This document shows positions 9,441 to 29,070 of a DNA stretch of 64,000 nt, piece by piece. Position 1 is the first letter of the stretch, and each line of letters opens with the position of its first letter. Source of the stretch: an uncultured Victivallaceae bacterium (lineage in GTDB: Bacteria > Verrucomicrobiota > Lentisphaeria > Victivallales > Victivallaceae); the NCBI GenBank assembly GCA_944392655.1, contig CALXXL010000010.1, positions 1 to 64,000 on the forward strand. The letters are read 5' to 3'. The position numbers and the translations under genes are program-made. Under the pieces are notes generated by a model. That model saw only the letters and a list, made by a program, of their open reading frames with translations, made no database searches and had not been told where the DNA came from.

Positions 9441-9456
9441 GTCAATACTACTTATT

Positions 9457-9618
9457 TTATTTCTCTCCTTTTATCATCACAAGAATGCCGCTGGCACGCA
9501 TTATGCCGCCAATGGGCTTGTCGTAAGGATTGAATTTCTTGAAGTCCACTTTTACGATCGCGCCTTTATACATAAAAATCACCTGTTCATCGATAATTGT
9601 AAAATCAATCCGTTCCAT
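9457..9618 (-). CDS. Small phage protein, 53 residues
   Basis: Begins MERIDFTIIDEQVIFMYKGA three bases after the stop of the Rha-like gene and ends at 9457, well packed in the operon. Mixed strand/helix sequence with no membrane segment. Too short to assign. Coupled translation with the upstream gene is likely because TGA and ATG are separated by three bases. Confidence 0.6.
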   Translation of the reverse strand: MERIDFTIIDEQVIFMYKGAIVKVDFKKFNPYDKPIGGIMRASGILVMIKGEK

Positions 9619-9621
9619 AAC

Positions 9622-10674
9622 TCACCCCGCAACAGTCCCGTCCGCATGAAACGATACATTCGCCATTTCAGCTTTTTCTATCCTCATCCGTGCCGACGTT
9701 GCGGCCAGAAGAGAGCTGTTTTCCAGCACATCTCCGGTAATTGTGTACAAAATATCGAGTATTTTGCCACCCATGGCGGCCGCGGTGTGAGCGGCGTAGA
9801 ACTCGCTTAAAAGTCCGGAGGGGTCATACCCCATATTCAGCAGTTCCCGGCAGAATCTGACGATGGCGGTATCGCCGAACGTGGTTTTACTGTCGTGGTC
9901 GAACCATCCGGCACGGAAAGTGAAATTGTCCGGCGACACATCAGGTGCGAGTCTTGGCAGCGGCAGCTCTTTTTCCGTTGCGGCCGCCATTGCCCGGGTA
10001 AAATCCGCCTGGACAAGGTCCGGTTTGAACCGTGCCGCGGCCTTTACGAATCCGGATCTGGTGTACAGCGTTACGCTGATGATGTTCGGGCTTACGGTAA
10101 ACCCGCACTTCAGCATGGCGAACGCCAGTTTGTCGGTAACGCCGTTGATATGGAATACGTCCACTCCCTCAATCATTGGATTATACCTGTGCAGCCAAAA
10201 GCCGAGCTGTCCCTCGGTTATGCCGAGCCTCATGCGCAGTTCGCCGCCGGGGATTACCTCGATTCCCTTATACTTCAATGGTGAAAACGGCTCCGCCGGA
10301 GCGTTCAGCGGCAGTTCCGGCTGCACCGGCGCGGCCTGTAATTCGCGCAATTTAGCCTCCATGCGGTTGAACTCTTCAAGATACGCGATTTTGAACTGCA
10401 TCGCCTTTGCTCCGGTGAAGCCCATGACAAGAAGCGTGAAGCCGTCACGGGTGATGATATACATCGGATATTTTATCGTTTTTCCAATGCCATTTTGGGA
10501 GGAATATTCAGAGAGCGCAAAATTGCGTTTTCTGAAGCCATCAGGAACTTGCAATGATTCGATGGCTCGAAGCACGTCACAATGTTTCTTGCCGAACACC
10601 TCGGAAATTTTAAGACTGGAGGTAGTGACTTGACCGTTGGAAACGGTCACGGCGTTGGAGATATTGCTGATCAT
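9622..10674 (-). CDS. Rha family phage regulatory protein with C-terminal extension
   Basis: 350 residues from ATG 10674 (MISNISNAVTVSNGQVTTSS), chosen because AAAGGA lies just upstream; a longer frame to 10749 would run through a structured RNA. Residues about 10-105 match the Rha domain (SLKISEVFGKKHCDVLRAIE, then YIITRDGFTLLVMGFTGAKA). A proline-rich linker at about 115-135 (QPELPLNAPAEPF) leads to a 215-residue C-terminal part of unknown type. Rha proteins are temperate-phage regulators often paired with antirepressor functions. The location in the middle of the head-tail genes and the RNA element ahead of it are unusual. The C-terminal domain may give DNA or repressor binding. Confidence 0.82.
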   Translation of the reverse strand: MISNISNAVTVSNGQVTTSSLKISEVFGKKHCDVLRAIESLQVPDGFRKRNFALSEYSSQNGIGKTIKYPMYIITRDGFTLLVMGFTGAKAMQFKIAYLEEFNRMEAKLRELQAAPVQPELPLNAPAEPFSPLKYKGIEVIPGGELRMRLGITEGQLGFWLHRYNPMIEGVDVFHINGVTDKLAFAMLKCGFTVSPNIISVTLYTRSGFVKAAARFKPDLVQADFTRAMAAATEKELPLPRLAPDVSPDNFTFRAGWFDHDSKTTFGDTAIVRFCRELLNMGYDPSGLLSEFYAAHTAAAMGGKILDILYTITGDVLENSSLLAATSARMRIEKAEMANVSFHADGTVAG

Positions 10675-10696
10675 TTCTGATCCTTTCCCGCCCTGA

Positions 10697-10776
10697 AAGA
10701 AAAAGAGCGTCCGCGGTCGGTGCGCCAACACCTTGCAGGTCGGCACCACCCGTTACCCGCTTCACGCGAAACGCTC
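10697..10776 (-). ncRNA. Structured leader RNA, candidate C4-type antisense RNA
   Basis: On the minus strand a stem GAGCGT/ACGCTC (10771-10776 with 10705-10710), continued by CGCG/CGCG, encloses an inner stem GGTGC/GCACC capped by ACCT-GCA-AGGT, and ends in UUUUUCUUUC. Its length, about 80 nt, and its place upstream of an antirepressor-like gene match the C4 antisense RNAs of P1-like and other temperate phages (about 77 nt). I cannot verify the family without a covariance search. It could also be an ordinary attenuator in the transcript from the promoter at 10875-10902. Confidence 0.5.
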
Positions 10777-10848
10777 AAATCATCAAGGCAAAAAAAATGT
10801 TTTCGTTTTACACCGTCCGGAGTTGGTGACTCCTGAAAACTGTCGGTG

Positions 10849-10868
10849 ATCGCGATTGGCGTCGCGAT
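10849..10868 (-). promoter_or_regulatory. Palindrome at the transcription start of the Rha promoter
   Basis: ATCGCGA-TTGGCG-TCGCGAT, a 7-bp perfect inverted repeat right at the predicted start of the transcript from the promoter at 10875-10902. It may be an operator or a 5' stabilising stem. A second short hairpin (GGAGT/ACTCC) follows at 10819-10833. Confidence 0.4.
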
Positions 10869-10874
10869 AATTTT

Positions 10875-10902
10875 ATTATAACACGTTTCTAAAAAATGTC
10901 AA
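10875..10902 (-). promoter_or_regulatory. Near-consensus sigma-70 promoter driving Rha
   Basis: TTGACA (10897-10902) and TATAAT (10875-10880) on the minus strand, separated by 16 bases. Both hexamers are perfect. Transcription would start near 10867 and run through two small hairpins and the structured RNA into the Rha gene. This is the strongest promoter match in the prophage. Confidence 0.8.
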
Positions 10903-10983
10903 ATACAGTATACGTCTGGTACACGTTTAAGGGCACCTTCATTATTGTGCTTTATTGTGCCTGGCATTTCCAGACCACTTTTT

Positions 10984-11142
10984 TTATATTTCTGGTTTGG
11001 GTTTATTCTTACTTCCTTTGGGGCGGCCTCCTTTTGATTTTCTTGCTGCCAAAGCCGCAAGACTCGCTTTTTTCCTTTTTTCAGACGTGGTATAGCTGCG
11101 GATTTTCTGTCCGCACATCGGGCATATATCCCCCGGCTTCAA
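10984..11142 (-). CDS. Small zinc-knuckle/AT-hook-like phage protein
   Basis: An open frame encodes KPGDICPMCGQKIRSYTTSE, then a lysine/alanine-rich stretch and GGRPKGSKNKPKPEI. The CPMC pair suggests half a zinc site and GRPKGSKNK is an AT-hook-like motif, so DNA or RNA binding is plausible. No ATG lies in a suitable place: the frame extends upstream in a sense direction to an AGGAGG at about 11175-11180, and a TTG (11142) or the internal ATG (11118) are the only usual starts. Coding is supported by composition, but the start is uncertain. Confidence 0.45.
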   Translation of the reverse strand: MKPGDICPMCGQKIRSYTTSEKRKKASLAALAARKSKGGRPKGSKNKPKPEI

Positions 11143-11192
11143 TTCATTTTTCTTTGTTTCCGTTTGATTTTCCTCCTTTCTGCGTTATATTA

Positions 11193-11219
11193 GAGCCGCC
11201 CCCTTCCTCAAGGGGGGCG
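11193..11219. repeat. GC-rich inverted repeat
   Basis: CCGCCCCC and GGGGGCGG around an AT-containing loop, followed on the plus strand by GTTTTCTT. It may terminate plus-strand transcripts or simply separate two minus-strand small genes. No plus-strand gene ends here, so the role is unclear. Confidence 0.35.
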
Positions 11220-11249
11220 GGTTTTCTTATTTAGCGTGAGACTTTGGGG

Positions 11250-11360
11250 TTAGCGGTCAAACTTTATTCCCATTGCCTCGCGCTCTTTTTTTGTCGTGGT
11301 TTCGGTAAGACATCCTTTGGGATCGATCAGAAACCACATCCACCGGAGCACATTTCTCAC
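11250..11360 (-). CDS. Micro-protein, 36 residues, strong SD
   Basis: GTG start at 11360 preceded by AAAGGAGGTGA, an almost perfect Shine-Dalgarno. The peptide starts MRNVLRWMWFLIDPKGCLTE and ends in a charged half (TKKEREAMGIKFDR). The aromatic N-terminus could associate with membrane but is too short for a clear transmembrane helix. It lies between the TerL-linked small gene and the Rha region, with a promoter-like site, palindrome and hairpin directly upstream. Function unknown. Confidence 0.6.
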   Translation of the reverse strand: MRNVLRWMWFLIDPKGCLTETTTKKEREAMGIKFDR

Positions 11361-11401
11361 TGGCTCACCTCCTTTCCGCCCTGTCGGGCTTGTCAAAAAA
11401 C

Positions 11402-11452
11402 CTGACCGCTTTCCCGGTCAACAATTATAATATACTCTTAATTTTAGAGTAT
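11402..11452 (-). promoter_or_regulatory. Promoter-like site with palindrome and attenuator hairpin
   Basis: Reading the minus strand: a 7-bp inverted repeat ATACTCT/AGAGTAT (11432-11452), then TATAAT at 11424-11429, then hairpin TGACCG-GGAAAG-CGGTCA (11403-11420) followed by GG and TTTTTT. The palindrome covers the place where a -35 box would be, as an operator does. The hairpin with U-run lies just inside the transcript, as an attenuator or as terminator of the upstream gene. It serves the 36-residue gene at 11250-11360. Confidence 0.5.
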
Positions 11453-11542
11453 TCAAGTGATAATTTAAAAAAAGTATGAAAAAATGATAAAAAAATCCCG
11501 TCCGAAAACTTGTCAGACGGGGGTGTGATTTATCTGGAAAAA

Positions 11543-11815
11543 TCAATCGGTCATCAGCTTTTCGGGAGCGGAAGTAATTGCCGTTTTCCGAACGATTGCC
11601 CGCTTGGGAATCGTCATCACCCCGCAGCACTGAAAAAATGCAGTGGGGTGATTTTTTTCTGAAACATGTGGTGCCAAAGTGATACTGTCTTTGGATTCCG
11701 CCACTTTCCACCCTACAGAAAAACAACGCATAGAACGAGTATGACAAAAATTTTCTGTTGGTTCCCACCCACGTCCCTGACAAGAGTCTTCCCATTCAAT
11801 AAACAATAGCTTCAT
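11543..11815 (-). CDS. Small conserved phage protein, unknown
   Basis: 90 residues (MKLLFIEWEDSCQGRGWEPT), with AGGAGA eight bases before the ATG. Starts with a hydrophobic strand then a WED/GW pattern that I have seen in small phage proteins of unknown function. It contains scattered Cys residues (CHTRSMRC, CCGV) without a clear metal motif. It lies 20 bases downstream of TerL and is probably co-transcribed with it. Confidence 0.6.
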   Translation of the reverse strand: MKLLFIEWEDSCQGRGWEPTENFCHTRSMRCFSVGWKVAESKDSITLAPHVSEKNHPTAFFQCCGVMTIPKRAIVRKTAITSAPEKLMTD

Positions 11816-11835
11816 ATCATTTCTCCTGTTATTTT

Positions 11836-13080
11836 TTATGCCAGAATAAACCGCTGTCCACCTTTAGCGAGTTCGGTCAACGCCCAGACAAGAGCGTCCA
11901 TCCGGTCGGGGCTTTTTGTCGCCGTCAACGGGGCGAAGCCGGTCATCTCCTCCTCCAGATCGGGAAAACTTCCGACGTGGTGGACGCGCCCCTTTTCGTA
12001 AAGCGCCGCCGCCGGTTCAGCGCGAATGATCTTTCCGCGGGAAGCGCGTACCGCCCGGAAAGGAATATCCGGATCAATTTGGCGCAACAGCCCTTCTATC
12101 AGGTCGCCGCCGTTATTAACTTCGCCAATCACCCGGTCCGCATCAAATTCGCGGCAGAGCTTCACCACCTCCCGACACCAGGAGAGCGGATCGGTCCGGC
12201 AGCTCCGGTCAGCCAATACATAATAATCGCCGTCCACGCCGATTCCCGCGGCAACGATGCCGGTATAATCGCTCTCTTCGCCTCCGGTTACAGCCGGGTC
12301 AACTCCTACCACCACCCGCACCAAATCGGGCGCATTGACCACTCTGGCGGCATCGATCATTGACTGTTTCCACAACGCCCCCTCGGTATCATCCAGCCAT
12401 TCGCCGAGCAAAAACCGCTGGCGCTGACGGAGCGAAAGAGCGCCGAGCGTCTCCTCGATGTAGCCCGCCGGCAGGTTTTCGCGGTTGTCCTCCGGATTGA
12501 TCCGCATCGCCGCATAGTCGTCCGGATTACTCAAAGCAGTTCGATCGATCGGCTGAAGATGTTGCACAAAAAGCCGGTACGCCCAGTGCGATTTCGAGGG
12601 CGGGTTGCAGTCATAAAAAGCCTTGTTACGGATCTTCGGGCAATTTTGCGCGAGACGGGTCAAAGCGGTCTGTATGCTCGCATAGTCGAGCTCGGAACAC
12701 TCATTGAAATATACCGTGGCAAACTCTTTGCCGAGAATCTTATCGGCTCTTTGCGCATCATCCAGGCCGATCAGCCAGATCTCCGAGCCGTTCGCCAATC
12801 TTAACACGCTGTCGCTTTGATTGTAACTGACTTTCCAGCCGGAAAACCGCAGACGCAACGCCTTGGGCAGCGTGTCCATCCCGATGGAGGTTTTGACGCC
12901 GTTGTAATGCCGCCGGATGATCGCGTGACGACTGCCGGGAGCCTTCCCCGCCCGTGCGAGGATCGCGCAGCAAAGGACAAAGGTTTTCCCCGACCGTGAA
13001 CCGCCGAACAGCATCGTATGCCGCGCCGCTCCGGAGAGCAGACGCAATGCCTGTTTTTGAGCCGCCGTATAGTGGAACAT
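11836..13080 (-). CDS. terL: Terminase large subunit
   Basis: 414 residues. The ATPase half has Walker A FGGSRSGKT at 25-33 and Walker B VYFNE at 123-127. The nuclease half has the RNase H-like acidic residues in VGVDPAVTGG (D261), VIGEVNNGG (E320) and SPDRMDALVWAL (D392/D395). This is the phage packaging motor, which translocates DNA into the prohead and cuts concatemers. It starts at TGATG overlapping the upstream HTH gene. It is not next to portal: portal and the TerS-like gene lie about 6-7 kb upstream, past the MuF cassette. That is a displaced position for TerL. Confidence 0.95.
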   Translation of the reverse strand: MFHYTAAQKQALRLLSGAARHTMLFGGSRSGKTFVLCCAILARAGKAPGSRHAIIRRHYNGVKTSIGMDTLPKALRLRFSGWKVSYNQSDSVLRLANGSEIWLIGLDDAQRADKILGKEFATVYFNECSELDYASIQTALTRLAQNCPKIRNKAFYDCNPPSKSHWAYRLFVQHLQPIDRTALSNPDDYAAMRINPEDNRENLPAGYIEETLGALSLRQRQRFLLGEWLDDTEGALWKQSMIDAARVVNAPDLVRVVVGVDPAVTGGEESDYTGIVAAGIGVDGDYYVLADRSCRTDPLSWCREVVKLCREFDADRVIGEVNNGGDLIEGLLRQIDPDIPFRAVRASRGKIIRAEPAAALYEKGRVHHVGSFPDLEEEMTGFAPLTATKSPDRMDALVWALTELAKGGQRFILA

Positions 13081-13610
13081 CAGAAATGGAACTCCATCTG
13101 ACCGGAACTGCTTATTTTGCGGCGTGGTGCGGTGAACTCCCGTCTTGCCCGGCGGATTTTTTTGACGGTCATGGCCAGCAGTGCAGCGAGTTCGGGCGAT
13201 TTTCGGGCAACGTCGAGCATTTTCCGGTGCATCCCCTGCCGGGAAATACCGTGTATTCTGGCGATTTCGGCCACGGAATAACGTTTAGCCTCGCGGGATG
13301 GGGCGATGATTTCGGCGAGTATGCCCAGAGTGTAATCATCGAGATGCAGAATAAAATTGAGGAATCCGGCCAGATCGGCGGAGGTCTGAGTTGCGGAAGT
13401 CGGCTCTTCTTCCTCCTCCGGTGCATCGCCCGGAATGTGGCTGTAATCGGCGAGATCGGGCGCCCATCCGGCAACGCTGTCATAGTCCTGACCATAGAGC
13501 GGGCGGTTCATGGCCGGTTCGGTTTCGGTGCAGAGCCGGCACGCCTCCGCATATTCGCAGGGCTGACCACACTTATCGAATTTTCCCCAGCATTCCGGTG
13601 CGGCGTGCAT
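13080..13610 (-). CDS. HTH protein coupled to TerL, Cys-rich N-terminus
   Basis: 176 residues from ATG 13610 (MHAAPECWGKFDKCGQPCEY) with AAAGGAG upstream. The N-terminus has clustered Cys (ECWGKFDKCGQPC, then EACRLC), consistent with a zinc or Fe-S site. The acidic linker EEEEEP is followed by a helix-turn-helix at about 128-150 (YSVAEIARIHGISRQGMHRK) and a basic tail. Stop and TerL start overlap (TGATG). It may be a second, TerL-linked small terminase or a phage regulator; the better TerS candidate by sequence is at 20228-20686. Confidence 0.65.
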   Translation of the reverse strand: MHAAPECWGKFDKCGQPCEYAEACRLCTETEPAMNRPLYGQDYDSVAGWAPDLADYSHIPGDAPEEEEEPTSATQTSADLAGFLNFILHLDDYTLGILAEIIAPSREAKRYSVAEIARIHGISRQGMHRKMLDVARKSPELAALLAMTVKKIRRARREFTAPRRKISSSGQMEFHF

Positions 13611-13760
13611 TTGTTTCTCCTTTCCGGATATTAATTTACGACAAATTTTCCGGAATAGCAATACACAAAAGTTACAATTTTGTAACTTTTTTTAATCCCC
13701 GGAGAGCAAAAGTAAGCTTATGAAAAACACGCTCCTTTCCCTTTCCGGTTTTCAGGGCGT

Positions 13761-13794
13761 AAAAAAAGCCCCGTGCAATCAAGCATGGAGCTTT
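13761..13794 (-). terminator. Rho-independent terminator after the MuF cassette
   Basis: AAAGCTCCATGC-TTGATT-GCACGGGGCTTT (one mismatch and one wobble) followed by seven U on the minus strand. It ends the capsid/MuF transcript before the HTH-TerL unit begins. Confidence 0.8.
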
Positions 13795-13869
13795 GGGATA
13801 GACATTCAATCGCCGTTACCGCCCGTTTATGACGGTAAAAGGCCGGGCTTTAAAACTGATAGCTCCGGG

Positions 13870-13932
13870 TTATTCCTGCGGAACCTCTACCTGTCTGGCG
13901 TTCTCCCACGCATCAAGCTGTTCATCTGTCAT
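13870..13932 (-). CDS. Micro-ORF, 20 residues, coupled to the preceding small gene
   Basis: MTDEQLDAWENARQVEVPQE, starting in an ATGA overlap with the stop of the 65-residue gene and ending about 75 bases before the terminator. The overlap is the same kind used by the genes around it. The acidic composition fits an accessory to the cassette, but a 20-residue frame can arise by chance. Confidence 0.35.
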   Translation of the reverse strand: MTDEQLDAWENARQVEVPQE

Positions 13933-14126
13933 GAATTCAGGCTCTGCCCGAAAAGCACGACCGTTTTTTTATCTACAGCAATGTCTGCCGGACGACCTAT
14001 CACGACCCCATCCATATCCAATAAAAAAATCCATAAGTCATCAGTTTCATCCGCAATTCGGCTTAATGGTATACCGCTACCGTTAAAATCCTGTGCGATT
14101 TTAAATGCTTCTTTCAGGGTAATCAT
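13929..14126 (-). CDS. Small acidic protein, putative immunity factor
   Basis: 65 residues from ATG 14126 (MITLKEAFKIAQDFNGSGIP), with AGGAGA six bases upstream. Sequence has an N-terminal helix, then ADETDDLWIFLLDMDGVVIG and further strands, resembling small YrhB/SMI1-like immunity proteins in shape, although I cannot claim membership. It is the second small gene behind the MuF-zincin gene, in the same transcript, before the terminator. By location it is a candidate antidote to that protein. Confidence 0.55.
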   Translation of the reverse strand: MITLKEAFKIAQDFNGSGIPLSRIADETDDLWIFLLDMDGVVIGRPADIAVDKKTVVLFGQSLNS

Positions 14127-14169: not shown

Positions 14170-14403
14170 TCAATCTAAAATCGCATATCCACACTCAAAC
14201 ATGAGGAATCCTGGGTTTAGGGCTTCATGTAATTTCTTTTTCAGATCCTTCACCTCTGTTGCTTCCCGGATAACCGTGGCAACCACAGTTGAGTACTTAT
14301 CCCATCCATCAGGAGGGAAATGCTCTTTTCTATCAAGAAAATCATCATACTTAATGTGTGGAAATTTTTCCACAAGTATTTTTTCTAAATCATTTTCCGT
14401 CAT
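14170..14403 (-). CDS. Small protein overlapping the MuF-toxin gene, putative immunity factor
   Basis: 77 residues (MTENDLEKILVEKFPHIKYD). Its ATG overlaps the MuF stop (ATGA), so translation is probably coupled, the usual arrangement for toxin-immunity pairs. Mostly helical and charged, without membrane segment or known domain. As the first gene after a capsid protein with a zincin C-terminus, it is the leading candidate for neutralising that domain in the lysogen. Function is inferred from position. Confidence 0.6.
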   Translation of the reverse strand: MTENDLEKILVEKFPHIKYDDFLDRKEHFPPDGWDKYSTVVATVIREATEVKDLKKKLHEALNPGFLMFECGYAILD

Positions 14404-16313
14404 TTTGCATCCCTCATTTGCCTGTCAATATAATTCCAGATGTCAGGAAAATCAACTTGGAATACTATATCTTTTCGCAGCCATGCAGCTACGGCGTTGG
14501 CGTATGCCTCTCCATTTCCAAACGATCTTTCATACTCCTTTCTGCTGTGTCCTGCCCCATATCTTGCTTTTGTGATAGAGCCGACAGTGTCTTTGTACAT
14601 GGCCAGAATATACCGTTTTTCAGTATCAAGGTTATAATACTGCTCACCAAACAATCGTATGGAAAGTTCCTGAAAATAGTCGCCTGTATTCCATTCAGGA
14701 TGTTCTCCGTTCAGTGAGATGACGCCATCAAAAGCCTTGAGTTTGCTTTTATATTTTGTTCTGGCACGTTCTTTGAGACCGTTCCAATCGTTTTCACATG
14801 CTTTATTAAATTCTTCTGCCGCAATGTCGACGTCTCCCCAAGTGGATTTCCCCGGTTTAATCCGGCGGAATCTGGAATGACGATCCTGCCAATGTCCAAA
14901 TTCATGTTGTGCAGTTGAAACGGCGTGCCCGTTATTCATATCGACTTTTATATATTCCTTCTTTGAATCTGTTTCCCAGAAATAGCCGCCTCTTCCATTT
15001 GTGGAAACAATTTTCGGCGGTTTGCCGAGTTTGGCCATTGCGGGGGTGTAGGCATCGGCAAACGCTCCGGCTACTTCTTTTGAACCGCCGTCTTTGATGA
15101 TCTGCTGATACCAGGCGTCGCGCCGTTTATCGTAAGCGGCTTCCCACTGCGCCTGCCGTTTGGCACGGTGTTCCTCCGGAGTTTCCTTTTTCGCGGGCTG
15201 AACGGGCTGATTTGCCGGAGCCGCCGGTTGAGCCGGTCCATTCAGCGGCAGGTTTGGCTGAACCATTGCGGAAGTACCGTTTGCAGGCTTAGCCGTGGCT
15301 TGTGATAGCTTTTTCGGTGTTGCCGGGGTAGTTGACGCAGGTTGCTGTTTTTGCGCAGCGGAGGGGCTTTTCTTAGCTTTTTCGGGTTTCAGGCTTTTGC
15401 GGTACTTTTTCCACGCCTCCGGATTGTCCTTTTCCTCCCTGCCGGGAGAGTTGACGCCCTCTTTCGGGCGGCCGTCGGCAGAGAAATCCTCCTGGCGCGC
15501 GAATTCCCCGACTGCTACAAACGAGTGCGTGCAGTTCGGGTGGCACAACCCGGCGGCAGTCGCCTGCTCAACGGTCGGCAATCCCTCAGTCGCGCCGGAA
15601 ATCGACAGCAACCGATTCTCCCACACCGCACAGGCCGGACACGGGTTGCCGGAAACCGTCACCCGCACCACATCGTTGCCGTTGGCGGCGCAGGCGTCAA
15701 AATAGCTCTGCCGTCCGGCGTTGAGCAACACGGTACGGGAGAGCATCTTGCAGTATGATTCGTTGTCCCATACATGCCCGCCGGCATCGACAAACTGGAA
15801 CTTTTCCGGACGTGTAAGGATTTTCCCGAGCAGCATCTCTTTGGTCTGCTCCGCCGTCATGCCGTTGACTCCGGCCAGCCGGAATACATCGGCGGAGGCC
15901 TGCCGGATGAACGCCACGTCGGACTTGATCATATTCTGAGTCATTCCCGCGATGTGATTGAACGCATCCTTCTGTAAAAGTTCTATTTTGCTTTTGTCGA
16001 TTTTTCCCAGCACTGAATTACCGAGGTCATGGAGTGCGTCGAAGTAGTATCCTTCCGCCACATAAGGGATCGCCCGCTTCATCTCCGCAACGAATGATTC
16101 CTCAAGTTTCCCGTAGTTGCGTTCAAGCTCATTGATAAGCTCCACCAGGTACTTGCCTTCGGACGGATTACCTTTCGACAAAACAAATTTGCGCAGCTGA
16201 TTATTCAGCCACTCGCGCGCCTGACGATAGATTGCCGCCATATTTGCGGTAGTGGCGGTGATTTCCTTATTGGCTTTTTTGTGCTGATCTAAAGTTTTTA
16301 CTACGGGATTCAT
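14400..16313 (-). CDS. MuF-type minor capsid protein with C-terminal zincin (HEFGH) effector domain
   Basis: 637 residues. Residues 1-270 match phage minor capsid 2/MuF proteins, including NPCPACAVWENRLLSISG (C225, C228) and GLCHPNCTHSF (258-263). A Pro/Gln/Ala-rich linker spans about 312-378. The C-terminal domain (about 380-637) contains STAQHEFGHWQD with the zinc-protease motif HExxH at 470-474; E602 in NGEAYANAVAAW is a possible third ligand. Capsid-borne MuF proteins with exchangeable toxin tails are known in temperate phages, and this looks like a metallopeptidase version, which could be delivered with the DNA. No SD is evident at the ATG, which lies just after a terminator. Confidence 0.85.
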   Translation of the reverse strand: MNPVVKTLDQHKKANKEITATTANMAAIYRQAREWLNNQLRKFVLSKGNPSEGKYLVELINELERNYGKLEESFVAEMKRAIPYVAEGYYFDALHDLGNSVLGKIDKSKIELLQKDAFNHIAGMTQNMIKSDVAFIRQASADVFRLAGVNGMTAEQTKEMLLGKILTRPEKFQFVDAGGHVWDNESYCKMLSRTVLLNAGRQSYFDACAANGNDVVRVTVSGNPCPACAVWENRLLSISGATEGLPTVEQATAAGLCHPNCTHSFVAVGEFARQEDFSADGRPKEGVNSPGREEKDNPEAWKKYRKSLKPEKAKKSPSAAQKQQPASTTPATPKKLSQATAKPANGTSAMVQPNLPLNGPAQPAAPANQPVQPAKKETPEEHRAKRQAQWEAAYDKRRDAWYQQIIKDGGSKEVAGAFADAYTPAMAKLGKPPKIVSTNGRGGYFWETDSKKEYIKVDMNNGHAVSTAQHEFGHWQDRHSRFRRIKPGKSTWGDVDIAAEEFNKACENDWNGLKERARTKYKSKLKAFDGVISLNGEHPEWNTGDYFQELSIRLFGEQYYNLDTEKRYILAMYKDTVGSITKARYGAGHSRKEYERSFGNGEAYANAVAAWLRKDIVFQVDFPDIWNYIDRQMRDAK

Positions 16314-16320
16314 AATTGTT

Positions 16321-16345
16321 AAAAAAGCCGGACTCCATGTCCGGC
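16321..16345 (-). terminator. Rho-independent terminator just before the MuF gene
   Basis: GCCGGAC-ATGGA-GTCCGGC plus six U on the minus strand. The stem is perfect. The MuF ATG lies 7 bases after the U-run, so MuF must be expressed by read-through or antitermination, or the site reduces expression relative to the capsid genes. Confidence 0.8.
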
Positions 16346-16353
16346 CACTCTTG

Positions 16354-16731: not shown

Positions 16732-16900
16732 TTCTGCGCTTCTCCGTTGTCTTCCTGCCGCCGTCCCGCTCCGCCACGATCTTCCGCACCTCCCCGTCGG
16801 ACAACCGCGCGTCGAAGCGCAACGCAGTGGCTGTTCCATTCCGGACAAACTGCACAACGCCGCGCCCGGCTATGCGCTGAATTGAGATGATTTTCACCAT
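16709..16900 (-). CDS. Small basic phage protein, 63 residues
   Basis: MVKIISIQRIAGRGVVQFVR, with AGGAG nine bases before the ATG at 16900. Strand-rich, then a basic C-terminus (GGRKTTEKRRNVKSRKS). The last 23 bases overlap the next gene. Position right after major capsid protein is common for a small head protein or joining factor; no family recognised. Confidence 0.6.
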   Translation of the reverse strand: MVKIISIQRIAGRGVVQFVRNGTATALRFDARLSDGEVRKIVAERDGGRKTTEKRRNVKSRKS

Positions 16901-16916
16901 TTTGCAATTCTCCTGT

Positions 16917-16961
16917 CTGATTCAGGCGGCTTTGACGTCATCTCCGCCGCCTGTGAATCAG
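16917..16961 (-). other. Long stem-loop between MCP and the next gene
   Basis: Arms CTGATTCaCAGGCGGC-type (16946-16961) and GCCGCCTGAATCAG (16917-16930), nearly perfect over 14 bp, with a 15-base loop. It is not followed by a U-run. It sits immediately 3' of the MCP stop, where it could protect MCP mRNA from 3' decay or act as a processing site. Confidence 0.5.
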
Positions 16962-16964
16962 GAG

Positions 16965-18173
16965 TTACTCGGTTACCGCCTTGGTGGGGATCGGGTTGTC
17001 TTCGGTGTTGGCGACAGTTACCGCGCCAAGATTAGCCTTAATCCCGGCGAGCGCGGTGGCGGACGGCATCACTCCTTTGATCCGGCAGAGCCGCTGTTTG
17101 GCGTTTTTGAACTCAAAGGTAAGTTCGCCGAGGGCCATGCGCTTTACACCGTCAAAACCTTTTGGCGTAGCGTCTTCGTCGCTGATGGCGCGTCCTTTGA
17201 GATTTGAGAGGCCGAAACCGGCGGGATCGATCACCCAGACGTCGGTATCCGGCACATCCGGGTCGGCCATGATGGTCATGCCGCGGCCGTTTACCTCATT
17301 GACGATAACCGCCACATACGCGCCGCGCTGGTTGTCGGACCGGAGGATCTGAAGCCGGTCTTTAAACTCGCAGGAGAGGACGCGGGCCTGTCCCGGCGAA
17401 CAGAGAATCTGGGTCGGATTTCCGCCCTCGCCCAGGATTGCCTGCGCGGCGTCGTTGACGATATAACTGTCGAGCCGGGCGCCGGCGGCATCAATCGCCA
17501 GTCCGCCAGCCTGAGTACCGAAAAAGTAGAGTCCGCCAGCTTCGCCGCGGGTAGTTCCGTTGGCCTCGACCCGGCGGCCGAAGAGCACAACCCGGTTCAG
17601 GTCGCGGGTAAGCTCCTGCATGGCGAAGGCGGTCTGCCGGTTAAGCTGATTGTCCACCGCACCATAGACGTCAATGGCCAGTGCCGAACCGGAGAGGATG
17701 ATCTCTTTGCGGAAGATCTGGGTGCAGTTGTATTCAGTTACGGACTGATGATAATTCTCTTCGCCGTCGCCGTTGCTGGTGGCTTCCGCCATCGGCGTTG
17801 AAACGATATTGAGGACATCGCCGCTTTCCGGAGCGGACTTGCTCGAACCGTTGGCGGCGGCCAGTTCAACCGTCACGGTAGTACCGGAAACGGAGGCGAC
17901 GCGGAAAAGCGCGGAATCATCCTTGACGGTCAGCAGAGTACCTACTTTGACTTTGGCGGCGTCGGCGGCGCTGACAGTGCAGGCCATGCCGGAAACGCTG
18001 GTCGCGGTGATGCTTCGGCCGGCAATCTGATCTTCCAGCCACTCGTGCTTCTGCTGGTGTGCCACGGCCACGGTGCCGAAATTACTGATAAAACGCGGTT
18101 CATCCTTAATAACTTCCGAAAGAATGTTTGAAAGATCCCGTTTTTTGTTGTTAAAACTATAAGTGTAAAGCAT
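16965..18173 (-). CDS. Major capsid protein, DUF5309/SU10-like
   Basis: 402 residues, start MLYTYSFNNKKRDLSNILSE with AAGGAGA upstream. The N-terminal arm is followed by an inserted small beta domain at about 55-125 (TATSVSGMACTVSAADAAKV), then the HK97-type core with GEENYHQSVTEYNCTQIFRK and NDAAQAILGEGGNPTQILCS, features of the SU10/DUF5309 capsid family. The C-terminus ends with TVANTEDNPIPTKAVTE. The gene follows scaffold and precedes small head proteins, the usual order. Confidence 0.88.
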   Translation of the reverse strand: MLYTYSFNNKKRDLSNILSEVIKDEPRFISNFGTVAVAHQQKHEWLEDQIAGRSITATSVSGMACTVSAADAAKVKVGTLLTVKDDSALFRVASVSGTTVTVELAAANGSSKSAPESGDVLNIVSTPMAEATSNGDGEENYHQSVTEYNCTQIFRKEIILSGSALAIDVYGAVDNQLNRQTAFAMQELTRDLNRVVLFGRRVEANGTTRGEAGGLYFFGTQAGGLAIDAAGARLDSYIVNDAAQAILGEGGNPTQILCSPGQARVLSCEFKDRLQILRSDNQRGAYVAVIVNEVNGRGMTIMADPDVPDTDVWVIDPAGFGLSNLKGRAISDEDATPKGFDGVKRMALGELTFEFKNAKQRLCRIKGVMPSATALAGIKANLGAVTVANTEDNPIPTKAVTE

Positions 18174-18196
18174 TTTTATCTCCTTTTTGGGTTGGG

Positions 18197-18781
18197 TTAT
18201 TTAATTTCAGGTGCATTGTTGAGTTGTTCAATTATCGAGCCGATCCGGTCGCCGGGTTCCGGTTTCGGCTCCGGCTGACCTTTGGGCGGATCGGCGGGAC
18301 CGGCTCCCGGCTTAATGTCGGCGGCAAAATATTTCGGCTGTTCCTTTTTGAGCTTTTCGACAAACTCGCTTGTTTTCGCCTCATCCGAGAGGTCAACGCC
18401 GTTCTTTTCGGCGAGGTAGTCGAGATAGTCCGCATCCTCGCACTTGTGTTTCGCGGCCAATTCGCTGATGCGGTTGCGGCGGATCAACGCGGCGAGTTCT
18501 TTTTTCGCGTTATCGCGCTCAGTTTCGGCGGTCCGACGGGCCTCTTCGGAGGTCTTGAGCTTCGCTTCGGCGGCTTCCGCGCGCTTCTTGTAGCGTTCGG
18601 CTTCGGTCAACTTCTCCTGTTCGGCGGCGTCGAGCTTCTCCTGCGCCTCCTTGAGCTTCGCTTCGGCATTGTCGGCTCTGGTGGAAAGAGCGTCCGGATC
18701 GAACCGTTCAAGTTCGGCCTTTTCCAGTGCGTTGAGCTCCTCGCCCCTGGCGGCCTTTTTGATGATTTCACTGATTGTCAT
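18197..18781 (-). CDS. Capsid scaffolding protein
   Basis: 194 residues from ATG 18781 (MTISEIIKKAARGEELNALE), SD AAGGAG. Nearly all coiled coil at 35-105 (Glu/Ala/Lys heptads), then an acidic-hydrophobic helix and a proline-rich C-terminal tail (PADPPKGQPEPKPEPGD). This is the typical composition of phage scaffolds that assemble the procapsid and leave. Its start overlaps the portal C-terminus by 14 bases. A longer frame reaching 19036 is out-of-frame shadow of portal. Confidence 0.85.
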   Translation of the reverse strand: MTISEIIKKAARGEELNALEKAELERFDPDALSTRADNAEAKLKEAQEKLDAAEQEKLTEAERYKKRAEAAEAKLKTSEEARRTAETERDNAKKELAALIRRNRISELAAKHKCEDADYLDYLAEKNGVDLSDEAKTSEFVEKLKKEQPKYFAADIKPGAGPADPPKGQPEPKPEPGDRIGSIIEQLNNAPEIK

Positions 18782-20231
18782 TCTGAATATCTCCTTCGTT
18801 GTTGTCATCTGGATTACCATTGTCAATATTAAAGCCGAACTCCGGCACTGGAGCGGGTTGCAGATCTTCGATTTCCGCAAGCAAAGCAGTTTTGCGATCG
18901 TCCGGAATACTGCCGATAGCATCGAGCAGTTCAACTGCCACACCGAGCGCGGCCTTACGGAACTCGATCCCGGCGTCGGGGATGTTCGAGAGCTGCAAAA
19001 GTCCGGCGATATTTTTCTCGAGATCGCGGACGGCAAATTTGCGATTGTAGGTCACCTCCGGCACTGGTACGGCAGAATCCCATAATTTCATGATCTCCCA
19101 AGCCCGCAGTTCCGCCTGTTCGAGCAGGTCGGCACGATTGGCGAGAAACTGGGTCACATTCTGGAAGTCCCACGCTTTACTTTCCGCCGTCTGCGCCTCT
19201 CTGCTCTGGCTCTGAATCGCCAGACCGACAACATCATACAATTCCTGTTTAAGCCGGGTGTTTTCGGCGCGGATGGTGGAGGTTTCAACGCCGGACGGCG
19301 AGATGTAACGGCTGATTCCCTTTTCCTCCACACTTTCAATCAATGCGGCGGAACGGGCGACTACCGCGGCAAAACTGCCGGATTCCTCCTCATTTTTACG
19401 GGGCTGGATTTTCTCAGCGCCACGGGCGAAACTCTCGGAGACGACCAGCATCCCGAACATCTGCTTGACCACGTTCATCTGCGCCTCGGATTCGTTGTTC
19501 AATATCGCGTCGGAAATCCGGACAACATCCTCAAACCAGTGGTTCGCCTCAATGCCGTAGCCGTCCGGCTCGATGAGTTCCACCAGCGGGATTACTCCGG
19601 TGGGGTTGTCGCCCTCAGTGATTGCTCCGGTCAGCGGATCAAACAGCCGCCACTTTTCACGAGTCCAGAGCCGGATGCGCGACACGGTACGCCGGCCTAT
19701 GTCCGGATCCTGGTCATAAGTGTGTTTCTCTTCCACTTTAGCCCAGATGAGCCGGCGGTCGGGTCCATACGCCCAGTCCAGCACGGACAATGGAGACAAC
19801 GCCACACAATAGGGGCGCAGCCGCTCCCGTTCGGCGCGCTCGCGGTCAACCGGCCCGTCGAACGTTGGTGATCCGACAAACAGCCATGCGCGTCCGTAGA
19901 TATTGAGCAGGGTGGAAACCTGCCGCATCACCTCGTTGACGCGCAAGCCGGAGCGGCTCCAATCCTCTACCAAATCCGGATCTGCGCCGGAGCGGACGGG
20001 ATCAACCGCCAAAGCATACTGAGTGATACGCTGAGCGATATTGCGCGGATAGTTGAAGTAGTAGGCGCGGCGGAGGCGCTCCTCAAATTCAAGCGGGATT
20101 TCGGAGACGTGGCGAATCAATGCCCGGTGGATGTAATCGGTTCCGCCGGAATAGGCGTCACGGGCGCGTTTCCAGGCAAATTCGTGATCGCTGTATTCAG
20201 GGTGGCGGGTATTAAAGGTAAAAACAGTCAC
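18768..20231 (-). CDS. Portal protein
   Basis: 487 residues. The N-terminus (MTVFTFNTRHPEYSDHEFAW), the central helix and wing strands (RIRLWTREKWRLFDPLTGAI), and the long C-terminal helix region with QSQSREAQTAESKAWDFQNV fit the SPP1/gp6-type portal superfamily. The C-terminus is acidic and Asn-rich (FNIDNGNPDDNNEGD). It forms the dodecameric DNA gate at one capsid vertex. It overlaps the TerS-like gene at its start by 4 bases and the scaffold at its end by 14. Confidence 0.88.
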   Translation of the reverse strand: MTVFTFNTRHPEYSDHEFAWKRARDAYSGGTDYIHRALIRHVSEIPLEFEERLRRAYYFNYPRNIAQRITQYALAVDPVRSGADPDLVEDWSRSGLRVNEVMRQVSTLLNIYGRAWLFVGSPTFDGPVDRERAERERLRPYCVALSPLSVLDWAYGPDRRLIWAKVEEKHTYDQDPDIGRRTVSRIRLWTREKWRLFDPLTGAITEGDNPTGVIPLVELIEPDGYGIEANHWFEDVVRISDAILNNESEAQMNVVKQMFGMLVVSESFARGAEKIQPRKNEEESGSFAAVVARSAALIESVEEKGISRYISPSGVETSTIRAENTRLKQELYDVVGLAIQSQSREAQTAESKAWDFQNVTQFLANRADLLEQAELRAWEIMKLWDSAVPVPEVTYNRKFAVRDLEKNIAGLLQLSNIPDAGIEFRKAALGVAVELLDAIGSIPDDRKTALLAEIEDLQPAPVPEFGFNIDNGNPDDNNEGDIQNDNQ

Positions 20232-20686
20232 AATCCTTTTTCCTCCTCAATAAGTTTTATGGGTACACTGCCGCCCTCAATGCCGAGTTCGTGACGGTCG
20301 CGCCAGCGTTCGGGGCGGCGGTTTTTAAGCCAGAATATGGCGGCGGTGGTATCGGGCGGCACTTCGCGGGTGACGACGGTGCGGAACTGCCGCTGATTAT
20401 CATTGCTGTCGGCGTAAGAGTTGGTTTTTACCTCCTCATAGGAGTAGCCGGTAGCCCGGCGGAAGAGGGCGGCTTCGACGGCGTCGTCGGCATCGACCTT
20501 GCCCCGTTTTAAGGCTTCCATCAATTCCGGATAGAGGTTTTTGTATACGTTGAAACTGGATACGGCAACTCCGAGTTTGCGGCATATCTCCTCTTCGGTC
20601 GCCCCCATGCGGCAAAGATGCTCAATCCGCGCGAGGTGCGGCTTTACAAACGCCTCATATTTAGATTTTCTTCCGATTCCCGGCAT
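20228..20686 (-). CDS. Terminase small subunit-like protein
   Basis: 152 residues. Residues 30-55 form an HTH (GATEEEICRKLGVAVSSFNV). The C-terminal half contains the pattern PPDTTAAIFWLKNRRPERWR, typical of phage small terminases of this type. Stop and portal start overlap (ATGA). The SD (GGAG) is in the 3' arm of a terminator-like hairpin directly before the ATG. TerL is about 7 kb further on, so packaging subunits are separated here. Confidence 0.78.
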   Translation of the reverse strand: MPGIGRKSKYEAFVKPHLARIEHLCRMGATEEEICRKLGVAVSSFNVYKNLYPELMEALKRGKVDADDAVEAALFRRATGYSYEEVKTNSYADSNDNQRQFRTVVTREVPPDTTAAIFWLKNRRPERWRDRHELGIEGGSVPIKLIEEEKGL

Positions 20687-20718
20687 AAAAAAAGCTCCGA
20701 TGTTTTACACACCGGAGC
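20687..20718 (-). terminator. Terminator hairpin carrying the SD of the TerS-like gene
   Basis: GCTCCGGTG-TGTAAAA-CATCGGAGC, a 9-bp stem with one G-U pair on the minus strand, followed by seven U and immediately the AUG. It would end the RloB-gene transcript while exposing the capsid operon to read-through control. A TTGACA begins just before it. Confidence 0.75.
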
Positions 20719-20751
20719 CGGATTGTCAACAGAAAAAAAATACTGGCAAAA

Positions 20752-21318
20752 TTATGATCGAAAGAAAGATTCTATAATTTCAAAAACATTTCCCACAGAT
20801 TTCGGCGTTGAATAAAGCTTTTTTGCTCTTCGGGTTGCCTTAAGCACCCGCTCCTTGGTCACAAAACCGTCAGGAATATGCTTCTTCTTTCCACTCAACA
20901 GATTGCTATATTGTTCTTGGGCGGCGTTGTCACCTTCAACATGCAGCTTAAGCCAATCTTCAAACCGCCGCTCACTAATTGCTAAATGATACTTTCCTTC
21001 CTTGTTTTCTTGCATCCATTTTCTGATGTTTTCAATTTTTTCTTCCTTCCAATCGTCACGATCTATGACGATCCACGCCTCATCGTTTTCACTAAATGGA
21101 GCGTCTTTTAAGTAATCTTTCATGCGAGTCAATACTGCTAGGGGAGAACTTCCGTCTCCAGGATTTTCAACGATGTGGAAACGTGTGGTTTTGCTCATGC
21201 TAGTCAATCTAGTGAAATATTCCGGTTCGGTAGATTCCCCCTCGGCGGAAATTACGATAACCCGCTGGGATTGGCAAGTGGACCGTTTATTAAGTTCATC
21301 CCATCTGCTCATATTCAA
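20752..21318 (-). CDS. RloB/AbiLii-like Toprim defence protein
   Basis: 188 residues. The start is TTG 21318 (GAGG seven bases upstream, overlapping the ATPase stop) or ATG 21312. Residues 20-35 hold IVISAEGESTEPEYF and 81-90 AWIVIDRDDW: the Glu and DxD elements of a Toprim-like nuclease as in RloB. The rest is helical. RloB proteins pair with AAA ATPases in abortive-infection systems such as AbiL, and here the two genes are fused by a short overlap. The likely role is nuclease effector against competing phages. AT-rich compared with phage genes around it. Confidence 0.83.
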   Translation of the reverse strand: MNMSRWDELNKRSTCQSQRVIVISAEGESTEPEYFTRLTSMSKTTRFHIVENPGDGSSPLAVLTRMKDYLKDAPFSENDEAWIVIDRDDWKEEKIENIRKWMQENKEGKYHLAISERRFEDWLKLHVEGDNAAQEQYSNLLSGKKKHIPDGFVTKERVLKATRRAKKLYSTPKSVGNVFEIIESFFRS

Positions 21319-22634
21319 TCTCTTTCCTCGGGCTCTAGGAGAGAACCGAACCTGGTAAACAATGGAAGGCCACCCAACACCCCGTGCAAATACAATTTGC
21401 GAATATCTTTATCGTAACGGACATCATTGCACGACGGAGAACACAAAACTGAAACGCCACATTCATTACGTTCTACGATCCACATTTCATCACGCCGGAA
21501 TAAACTTTGATCCATCAACATGAGATCATGAGTGGAGAATATCAATTGAGAGCGCGATGCTTTGGAACAATGCGATAAATAGATTCCAAGCAGATGATAA
21601 GATAACAAATAATGCCAACTGCGATCTAATTCATCTATGATATATACTTTACGGGAATCACCGTGTTCCAGATCAATAAAAGCCGGAAGGATATCTATTA
21701 GGCGAAGTGATCCATCAGACTCTTGCGTTAGGTCAAATTTTACCAAATTACCATTGCTGTCCTCATGATAGGAAACCATCTTTTTAACAGTAAGTTTATC
21801 ATCTTGCTTACTGATCAGAAAACGTAATCCATTAAAATTAAGCTCCATGGATTGCCCATTATTCAACTTCTCTTTTATTTCAGATTCCGACTCTAGGAAT
21901 GGAGGCAACGAAGCAAAAGAAATTTCCTCCATATCCAGCTTGCAAATTCCGGTATCAAGTTGTTTAAGCAATGTAGCAAGATGTTCTGTGTCAGTCGGCT
22001 TGGAAGAAAACATGTATCCAAAACCACTAAACAAAGTATCAGGACCTATCAATATCAACTGATTACGGAACCAATTGTATGGATCTCTCAGTTGCGGCAC
22101 ACGCAGCCCGGCAACTCCGAGGAAAAACTGATTTTTTCCGATGATACGTGCAAATGCTTTGGCATCTCCGTCTTTTTCAATGGAATCCAAATGAACGTTA
22201 TCATTGCGATAATATAATTGGGTCTCTCCGCTAATTTTAACCACGCTCAACGATTCTTCGAGCACTGCATTTTTGGACAAAATGACATGAAAGGTATAAA
22301 TCTTATTATCGGCAGCCAAAAATGTAAGAGTAACTTCAAGCGGGTTTGCGGAAGTTTTCTGGGACAATGCAAATCCTTCAAATGGAAACTCTTTCTCTTC
22401 ATCACGAAGAGGACTGACTACCATTCGCTTTAAGAACGTCAACAACTTAAACAAATTCGTTTTCCCAGAGGCATTTCCTCCATACAGTACAGCAACTGGA
22501 GAGACGTTGAGCACAGGAGATTTCCGAATTTGCGGCACACGTTTTTTTAATTGTCGTTCGCTTGTGGCAACAAGAGAAAAATCTGTCTCTTCTTTGAAAG
22601 ACATCCAATTTTTAAACTTTAAATCGATAATCAT
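21315..22634 (-). CDS. RloA/AbiLi-like AAA ATPase (AAA_15/21 type)
   Basis: 439 residues. Walker A YGGNASGKTN at 51-60, ABC-like signature region SDGSLRLIDILPAFIDLEHG, Walker B KVYIIDELDRS and a switch histidine in LIFSTHDLMLMD near the C-terminus, as in OLD/RloA-type SMC-like ATPases. With the RloB gene it forms a two-gene defence unit, probably sensing infection and activating the nuclease. It has its own promoter (22664-22692) and SD (AAGGATAT), and terminators on both sides, hence a moron rather than part of the capsid operon. Confidence 0.85.
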   Translation of the reverse strand: MIIDLKFKNWMSFKEETDFSLVATSERQLKKRVPQIRKSPVLNVSPVAVLYGGNASGKTNLFKLLTFLKRMVVSPLRDEEKEFPFEGFALSQKTSANPLEVTLTFLAADNKIYTFHVILSKNAVLEESLSVVKISGETQLYYRNDNVHLDSIEKDGDAKAFARIIGKNQFFLGVAGLRVPQLRDPYNWFRNQLILIGPDTLFSGFGYMFSSKPTDTEHLATLLKQLDTGICKLDMEEISFASLPPFLESESEIKEKLNNGQSMELNFNGLRFLISKQDDKLTVKKMVSYHEDSNGNLVKFDLTQESDGSLRLIDILPAFIDLEHGDSRKVYIIDELDRSWHYLLSYHLLGIYLSHCSKASRSQLIFSTHDLMLMDQSLFRRDEMWIVERNECGVSVLCSPSCNDVRYDKDIRKLYLHGVLGGLPLFTRFGSLLEPEERD

Positions 22635-28360: not shown

Positions 28361-28873
28361 CTACGTAGTTTGAAGCAAAAAATTGATTACCGGATAATAA
28401 AAGCAAGCATTGCCGAGGCGGAACAGCGTCGTCTGGAATACATAAACACACTGCGTCCGGACTTAAACAATTGCCGAGAGGCGCTACGGCAGGCAAAATC
28501 CGAACGAGAAAAGATAATACACCTGCTTCTCGGAGACCATCTTTCAGAGGCGAATGTGCCGATTTTCAACGCCAGACTTGAAGCAGTCAGTAAAGAAATT
28601 GACCGGCTGAAAACTCGAATTGATCAACTGGATGCAGAGTGTAACACAATTGGTTATTCTCCGGACCAAGCAGTTTCTTTCATCCGTGAGCTTGAAACAC
28701 TTGCGGATATTATGAAATATATTCCTGAAGATTTCGAAAAACAACGTCGGATATTGGTAACTCATATTCAAAAAATAGAAGAACAAGCGGACGGCTCATT
28801 TCGCTTCTATTTCAATTACAGTTCGCCTAACTGTAAAGATTGGCAACCCCGCCAGGATTCGAACCTAGACTAA
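28322..28873 (+). pseudogene. C-terminal remnant of a large serine recombinase (integrase)
   Basis: A plus-strand frame of about 183 residues starting near AEQIEQEALNQLRSLKQ, with a long coiled coil (EYINTLRPDLNNCREALRQA; RLEAVSKEIDRLKTRIDQLD) and the ending FIRELETLADIMKYIPEDFE, as in the C-terminal domain of large serine recombinases after the zinc ribbon. The catalytic Ser domain is missing; the frame continues leftward only as antisense of primase. It terminates inside tRNA-Gln (WQPRQDSNLD), as integrases do at their att site. This supports this end as the prophage attachment side. Confidence 0.75.
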
Positions 28874-28914
28874 ATGAACCAAAATCACTTGTGCTACCAT
28901 TACACCACGGGGTT
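28841..28914 (-). tRNA. tRNA-Gln (anticodon TTG)
   Basis: Cloverleaf on the minus strand: acceptor AACCCCG/CGGGGTT, D-arm GTGT-AATGGTA-GCAC, anticodon stem AGTGA/TCATT with loop TTTTGGT (anticodon TTG), T-arm CTAGG-TTCGAAT-CCTGG, discriminator G and encoded CCA. Length 74 with CCA. It is the likely integration target of the prophage, because the recombinase frame ends inside it. Confidence 0.95.
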
Positions 28915-29070
28915 GCGCATGCGGTAAATTTAAACCTTTTTCCAAAAAATGCCAATTTTTAATCAAAAAAACCGCGAAAAAAGTGTTATTACAATTATAT
29001 TATAAAAATATGTTTTTTGTAAACCGGATATAATAAAATATAAAAAAGCGAAAAGGGAGCAGAATTAACA

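What the first reader, a model, noticed from the sequence alone, without database searches (positions are those of the whole stretch)
14170..16313. Capsid MuF protein with a zinc-protease-like tail and coupled small genes: candidate phage-borne toxin-immunity cassette
Seen: minor capsid 2/MuF domain (NPCPACAVWE; GLCHPNC), proline-rich linker, then a domain with HEFGH at 470-474 and a possible third zinc ligand E602; the next gene overlaps it by ATGA, a second small gene follows with its own SD, and a terminator closes the unit. Known: temperate phages carry MuF proteins with exchangeable toxin C-termini. Inference: this is a metallopeptidase effector carried in the virion and neutralised by one or both small proteins in the lysogen.
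Basis: partly seen in the sequence, partly recalled or inferred. Interest (0 to 1): 0.78.

Follow-up and report, generated by a model that had tools for sequence, protein, structure and literature searches.

The report
Phage capsid protein with swappable toxin
A dormant phage in a Lentisphaeria bacterium carries a capsid protein whose tail is a probable zinc-protease toxin, with a probable protective protein coded right behind it; close relatives of this phage carry quite different toxin tails in the same place, so this looks like a known kind of phage-delivered toxin system with a new toxin type in a little-studied group of bacteria.

Summary
The 637-aa gene (14400-16313, minus) has a Phage_min_cap2 (MuF2) domain, a proline-rich linker and a tail with HEFGH at 470-474. 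The 77-aa gene starts inside the MuF stop (ATGA). A viral contig (L018) has the same gene order and MuF half, but an ADP-ribosyltransferase tail and another small gene. An apparent remnant (L067) has a DUF3626 tail. In both, similarity to the window ends at the same place in the linker, and the tails score no better than shuffles. The same tail is also fused to a Mu-F-type (PF04233) protein (L006). Of 13 MuF2 places in 197 genomes of the class, 10 have a complete long tail, of several types, each followed by a 56-110-aa ORF; one is short and is followed by a head-closure-like gene; two are cut by contig ends. One correction: the 65-aa gene is a frame-broken orphan of a family that sits behind papain-fold MuF toxins, so it is probably not the cognate antidote. 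Zincin fold, toxicity, neutralisation and virion delivery are untested. It is a new member of a known kind (MuF polymorphic toxins).

The parts
14400..16313 (-). MuF2 minor capsid protein with C-terminal effector domain, 637 aa
15513..15794 (-). Phage_min_cap2 (PF06152) domain, residues 174-267
   Evidence: E 2.9e-15
15090..15512 (-). region between the domains with the Pro/Ala/Lys-rich linker; similarity to L018 and L067 ends inside it at 15238/15239, the upstream border of the exchanged cassette
14403..15089 (-). zincin-like effector tail, residues 409-637
   Evidence: found in 8 of 197 genomes of the class, this one included; conserved HExxH and E602
14892..14906 (-). HEFGH motif, residues 470-474 (predicted zinc ligands H470, H474 and catalytic E471)
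14508..14510 (-). E602, predicted third zinc ligand
   Evidence: invariant in 7 of 7 aligned sequences
14170..14403 (-). 77-aa gene overlapping the MuF stop by ATGA: proposed cognate immunity protein
   Evidence: position conserved in relatives
13929..14126 (-). 65-aa gene: C-terminally frame-broken orphan of an immunity-type family found behind papain-fold MuF toxins
13762..13848 (-). terminator-like 3' element, shared with three other places behind small genes
13080..13661 (-). presumed terminase small subunit gene (by position; weak HTH match); similarity to L018 resumes at 13610, the downstream border of the cassette
16317..16346 (-). terminator-like hairpin and T run just upstream of the MuF start codon

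Best explanation
This is a MuF-type polymorphic toxin and immunity cassette of a tailed prophage. The conserved N-terminal half is a minor head protein. The exchangeable C-terminal domain is a zincin-like metallopeptidase effector with H470, H474 and E602 as zinc ligands and E471 as catalytic base. The coupled 77-aa protein is the cognate antidote in the lysogen. The effector is presumably carried in the head, enters the next cell with the DNA and cleaves a host protein there; a cell already holding the prophage is protected. The cassette, from the linker to just before the presumed terminase small subunit gene, is swapped as a block between related phages. The 65-aa gene is a leftover antidote from another toxin. 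Shown: domain, motif, conservation, exchange, gene coupling. Inferred: zincin fold, peptidase activity, neutralisation, virion delivery, target.
For: L018, a viral contig with 71-77% DNA identity over MuF, portal-to-capsid region, presumed TerS and TerL, has an ADP-ribosyltransferase tail (PF03496, E 2.1e-23) and a different overlapping 69-aa gene. L067 has 80% identity to window 15239-15785 and a DUF3626 tail (PF12294). Similarity to both stops at 15238/15239; tail alignment scores 28 and 30 against shuffled means 32.5 and 34.1. MuF2 in 13 places in 11 of 197 genomes: 10 with complete long tail, all 10 with an ORF of 56-110 aa starting -25 to +25 nt of the stop (window searched: -25 to +80); 1 short, followed by a head-closure-like gene; 2 cut. 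Tails include ART, DUF3626, papain-fold PF15644 and several HExxH types. The same tail sits on a PF04233 protein with an ATGA-coupled gene (L006). Catalytic residues are invariant in 7 of 7.
Against: No library gives the tail a match over its cut-off (Pfam, NCBIfam) and PHROGs and PADLOC match nothing there. Both structure models are poor (mean pLDDT 36.7 and 50.5) and no fold match is significant (best E 0.38 in PDB, 0.011 in BFVD; Z at most 5.3). The small genes behind the same tail type are not detectably related, apart from the pair L012/L016, and the distant relative L015 keeps HExxH and the Glu but has no small gene behind it. The 77-aa protein matches a PHROG terminase family weakly (E 0.0015, 18.9 bits), probably chance. 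No integrase or repressor was identified, so 'temperate' rests on a Rha-type regulator, residence in a bacterial assembly and a tRNA-Gln at 28841-28914.
Confidence: 0.8

Rival explanations
1. The tail is a structural or maturation peptidase of the phage head, acting on phage proteins, and the small genes are ordinary head genes.
For: The domain is on a head protein and carries HExxH; 15 of the 40 phage rows listed for this MuF protein bear the label 'capsid maturation protease'.
Against: A phage with the same portal-to-capsid and terminase genes has an ADP-ribosyltransferase tail instead. A congener's MuF has no tail at all (L058). A maturation enzyme should not be replaceable by unrelated enzymes.
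Confidence: 0.07
2. The tail is an early-acting effector that helps the phage (against host defence, or steering lysogeny) with little toxicity, as proposed for low-toxicity MuF enzymes in PMC5576092.
For: That paper suggests this for peptidases and ADP-ribosyltransferases (parts 1-3 read). In PDB the poor model ranks ArdC, an antirestriction protein, first, not significantly.
Against: A closely coupled small gene in all 10 complete long-tail MuF2 loci points to a need for neutralisation. Not excluded: it can coexist with the best explanation.
Confidence: 0.2
3. Both small proteins are antidotes, with distinct modes, as in Apk2 (IapK and Aph1) and Bxa (Bsi and BAH).
For: Two immunity genes behind a prophage toxin are documented (PMC12226406 passages; PMC11699363 abstract). 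In G019 a member of the 65-aa family lies behind a truncated-looking HExxH tail of another type.
Against: The 65-aa copy is frame-broken relative to the 84-aa copies at C23:4848 and C31 and the 81-aa one of G019. Its DNA similarity to three other copies in this genome begins at the stop of the 77-aa gene, and family members directly follow papain-fold toxins in L064 and L077.
Confidence: 0.12

Closest known systems
MuF toxins (Jamet et al. 2017, PMC5576092; parts 1-3 of 6 read)
   Same: MuF1/MuF2 N-terminus, exchangeable toxin tail, small ORF downstream (89.4% of 191 there, 25.5% of 952 short MuF), packaging-module context; 20% of their MuF toxins had a metallopeptidase domain.
   Different: There MuF toxins are mainly in Firmicutes and MuF2 almost only in Firmicutes and Actinobacteria. 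Here Lentisphaeria, MuF after the presumed connector gene rather than immediately after the portal, and a tail below every library cut-off tried.
Apk2 with IapK and Aph1, MuF toxin of pneumococcal and Pasteurellaceae prophages (PMC12226406, passages)
   Same: MuF toxin followed by two immunity-type genes.
   Different: Alarmone synthetase, tested at the bench; both immunity proteins work there, whereas here the second gene looks like a broken orphan.
Tox-MPTase1-5 and other peptidase toxins (Zhang et al. 2012, PMC3482391, passages)
   Same: HExxH peptidase toxin at the C-terminus.
   Different: In the table passages seen these are listed with other delivery systems, not MuF; no sequence match to them was shown here.
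MPTase-PolyVal zincins (PF18818; polyvalent proteins, PMC5512222, passages)
   Same: Weak match around HEFGH (17.7 bits).
   Different: Below the 27.5-bit cut-off; not a member by that test.

Membership tests
MuF polymorphic toxins | N-terminal MuF domain | tested here: met
   PF06152 E 2.9e-15
MuF polymorphic toxins | C-terminal domain exchanged between related phages | tested here: met
   L018 ART, L067 DUF3626 with the same linker breakpoint
MuF polymorphic toxins | small ORF directly downstream of long-tailed MuF genes | tested here: met
   10 of 10 complete long-tail MuF2 loci; the 1 short MuF is followed by a 192-aa ORF ending in a head-closure-like sequence
MuF polymorphic toxins | portal/terminase gene neighbourhood | tested here: met
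   portal 18768-20231, TerL 11836-13080
MuF polymorphic toxins | temperate phage | tested here: inconclusive
   lies in a bacterial assembly with a Rha-type regulator and a nearby tRNA-Gln; no integrase or repressor identified
MuF polymorphic toxins | toxicity and neutralisation | not testable with these tools
   needs the bench
zincin superfamily | HExxH plus conserved third ligand | tested here: met
   H470, E471, H474, E602 invariant in 7 of 7 aligned sequences
zincin superfamily | zincin fold | tested here: inconclusive
   model of the L017 relative, pLDDT 50.5, strands then an HExxH helix; most listed structure rows are zincin-type by title but Z at most 5.3 and no significant E
MPTase-PolyVal (PF18818) | score above curated cut-off | tested here: not met
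   17.7 against 27.5 bits
65-aa gene in the immunity-type family behind papain-fold MuF toxins | homology to a gene directly coupled to such a toxin | tested here: met
   family members follow PF15644 toxins in L064 and L077; pairwise 34% and 32% identity between family members; 30% between the window copy and that of L064 in the alignment
65-aa gene in the immunity-type family behind papain-fold MuF toxins | intact full-length protein | tested here: not met
   frame broken after about residue 54 relative to the 81-84-aa relatives

The most novel reading that the evidence does not exclude
Lentisphaeria phages and their hosts may run a toxin and antidote arms race through virions. Phages exchange effector tails on a constant capsid protein as blocks bounded by the linker and a shared terminator-like 3' element. 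Hosts and mobile elements collect the lone antidotes as defence against toxin-carrying virions. In this genome contig C23 holds two copies of the 65-aa family, a second small-gene family that follows it in another genome, and an ADP-ribosylglycohydrolase, on the same contig as type III restriction genes and a phage-type integrase. These would answer the papain-fold and ADP-ribosyltransferase tails seen in related MuF proteins.
Probability: 0.17. Interest if true: 0.75.

Novelty: new member of a known kind. Interest (0 to 1): 0.5.

Why it matters
It extends MuF toxins to Lentisphaeria, with about as clear a case of tail exchange as sequence can give: same phage type, same place in the linker, unrelated enzymes. 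It offers a compact, testable pair (tail and 77-aa protein) and a candidate peptidase toxin family that no library used here recognises above its cut-off. If lone antidote genes in a defence island protect against virion-borne toxins, that would be a defence route worth testing.

Tried and rejected
No relatives of the tail were found in viral contigs or in named phages. The genome-contig scan gave one locus, L017, the same contig as L002. PDB sequence searches gave no significant match. Two structure jobs with two-row alignments were too poor to use. Fold searches gave no significant match; the second look listed mostly zincin-type entries, with four rows of a mycobacterial regulator among them (three at ranks 2-4), below the level the tool trusts. 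Profile comparison of this tail (A5) with the second HExxH tail type (A6) aligned only the stretch around HExxH, probability 25%. An integron was considered for the repeated 3' element: the integron-integrase model has no match over its cut-off in this genome, and no attC core was seen by eye; dropped. The 65-aa protein was not found in phages or plasmids, nor the 77-aa protein in phages. A terminator-like hairpin before MuF was found in 4 of 12 loci scanned (window, L018, L060, L007), but the start codons of some loci (L007, L056, L059, L064) are uncertain; left as an observation.

Full report
Setting. The window is part of contig C10 of a 2.34-Mb assembly. A genome of the same family (G006) has a 29,281-base contig whose stretch matches that of Lentisphaeria bacterium UBA5247, phylum Lentisphaerota, so the host is a Lentisphaeria bacterium (inference). 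On the minus strand the region reads: presumed terminase-type gene, portal, scaffold (below cut-off), major capsid, presumed connector, MuF, 77-aa gene, 65-aa gene, presumed small terminase gene (weak HTH), large terminase, Rha-type regulator, presumed head closure, tail completion protein, weak tape-measure match. The 'presumed' names rest on position and recall, not on a family match.

The gene. MuF2 domain PF06152 at residues 174-267 (E 2.9e-15), Pro/Ala-rich linker, tail 409-637. In the tail alone, Pfam gives only a sub-threshold MPTase-PolyVal match (17.7 bits, cut-off 27.5); NCBIfam gives nothing. Seven aligned sequences, window included, keep H470, E471, H474, E602 and N606. Fragments L003, L014 and L016 were not in that alignment.

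Relatives of the tail. Found in 4 of 100 genomes with the single sequence, 5 of 387 genomes of the phylum with three rows and 8 of 197 genomes of the class with five rows, this genome included each time. Fused to PF06152: window, L017, L007 and L014 (cut by the contig end); fused to PF04233: L006. In L012 the PF04233 match is on an upstream ORF separated from the tail ORF by two in-frame TAG codons. L004 is a 266-aa ORF with no MuF part seen, L003 a decayed remnant, L016 a fragment, and L015 a distant relative with no MuF part seen. Of the nine that could be read past the stop, seven have a small gene starting within 25 nt: window 77 aa, L017 64, L007 80, L006 58, L012 111, L016 175, L004 127. 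L015 is followed by a 224-aa ORF that by eye looks like an exonuclease, and L003 by a 173-aa ORF. The small proteins compared are not detectably related except L012 with L016.

Exchange. L018, a viral contig, matches window 16848-20733 (74%), 15392-16313 (72%), 13078-13610 (71%) and 11840-13081 (77%) at DNA level; a 62-bp match ends at 15238, and no similarity was found from there to 13610. Its tail is PF03496 (E 2.1e-23) and its 69-aa gene overlaps the MuF stop. L067, an apparent remnant lacking about the first 160 MuF residues, matches 15239-15785 at 80%, has a PF12294 tail, an 83-aa gene and a version of the 3' element. Halves scored apart: N parts 1307 and 804; tails 28 and 30 against shuffled means 32.5 (sd 5.3) and 34.1 (sd 5.6).

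Class survey. PF06152 occurs in 13 places in 11 of 197 genomes. Ten have a complete long tail: window, L017 and L007 (this tail); L056 (PF03496); L057 (PF12294; the same place as L067); L059 and L061 (a second HExxH type); L060 and L063 (other sequences with HExxH); L064 (PF15644 papain fold). L059, L060 and L061 have only sub-threshold Pfam matches and L063 none. All ten have an ORF of 56-110 aa starting between -25 and +25 nt of the MuF stop, in a search from -25 to +80. L058, of the same genus as the host, has 40 residues after the motif; its next ORF is 192 aa and ends in a relative of the window's 9122-9445 gene (45% over 88). L055 and L062 are cut by contig ends. Compact phage genomes often have overlapping genes, so one case proves little; the contrast agrees with the 89.4% against 25.5% in PMC5576092 (parts 1-3 read). 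With one short MuF the control here is small.

The 65-aa gene. Three more copies exist in this genome: C23:29090 (98%), C31:516 and C23:4848 (64%). DNA similarity of all begins right at the stop of the 77-aa gene. The window copy and C23:29090 share a frame break after about residue 54; the C23:4848 and C31 copies are intact at 91 aa by their first start codon, 84 aa as aligned. Family members directly follow PF15644 toxins in L064 (MuF2) and L077 (MuF1) (pairwise matches). The best reading is an orphan antidote. The 3' element recurs behind a different small gene at C23:2704-2790 and in L067. C23 also holds PF03747, HicB-like, phage-integrase-family and type III restriction-modification genes.

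Fold. Model of the window tail: pLDDT 36.7. Model of the L017 tail: 50.5, best in residues 31-60, with strands before the HExxH helix. By title and recall, 12 of the top 13 Foldseek rows in PDB are zincin-type, none significant (best E 0.38). In BFVD the best is an IrrE-like protein, E 0.011. VIA-align lists mostly zincin-type entries, with a mycobacterial regulator at ranks 2-4, Z at most 5.3, over about residues 1-92. Consistent with a zincin, not proof.

Literature. MuF toxins with metallopeptidase tails are known (PMC5576092). The MuF row of the table in PMC3482391 lists phyla that do not include Lentisphaerae or Verrucomicrobia (passage). Searches for Lentisphaer* with prophage and toxin (10 of 12 listed), MuF with metallopeptidase and prophage and MuF with toxin, prophage and Verrucomicrobi* listed no paper whose title or abstract start describes this case. 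Only open-licence PMC papers were searched.

Verdict. Observation confirmed; interpretation right in kind, with the 65-aa gene corrected. A new member of a known kind, with a tail type not recognised above cut-off by the libraries used.

Noticed in passing
window 20752-22634 (-): AbiLi/AbiLii-like (RloB plus AAA_21) gene pair upstream of the prophage head genes, a likely phage-borne defence cassette.
   Followed up: partly
G000:C23 (L027, L078, L025): Contig with lone copies of the 65-aa family, a second small orphan family, HicB-like antitoxin, ADP-ribosylglycohydrolase, phage-family integrase, Schlafen-AlbA gene and type III restriction-modification genes: looks like a defence and orphan-immunity island.
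   Followed up: partly
window 13762-13848; G000:C23:2704-2790 and about 28926-29007; L067 9093-9179: A hairpin-rich 3' element of about 85 bp follows three different small genes in two genomes; not an integron attC as far as seen.
   Followed up: partly
window 16317-16346; L018 7952-7980: A terminator-like hairpin and T run lies just upstream of the MuF start in both related phages, which could keep MuF expression low.
   Followed up: partly
window 28064-28914: tRNA-Gln at the right edge of the prophage region beside an ORF that by eye resembles the C-terminal part of a large serine recombinase (no family match over cut-off); possible attachment site.
   Followed up: no
L012 694-696 and 913-915: Two in-frame TAG codons between the PF04233 part, the linker and the tail of one relative: decay or recoding.
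   Followed up: no
window 9446-13661: Terminase and Rha-type regulator genes lie between MuF and the presumed head-closure gene, whereas in L058 the head-closure-like gene comes right after MuF and in L017 other short head or tail genes do; L018 shares the terminase placement.
   Followed up: no
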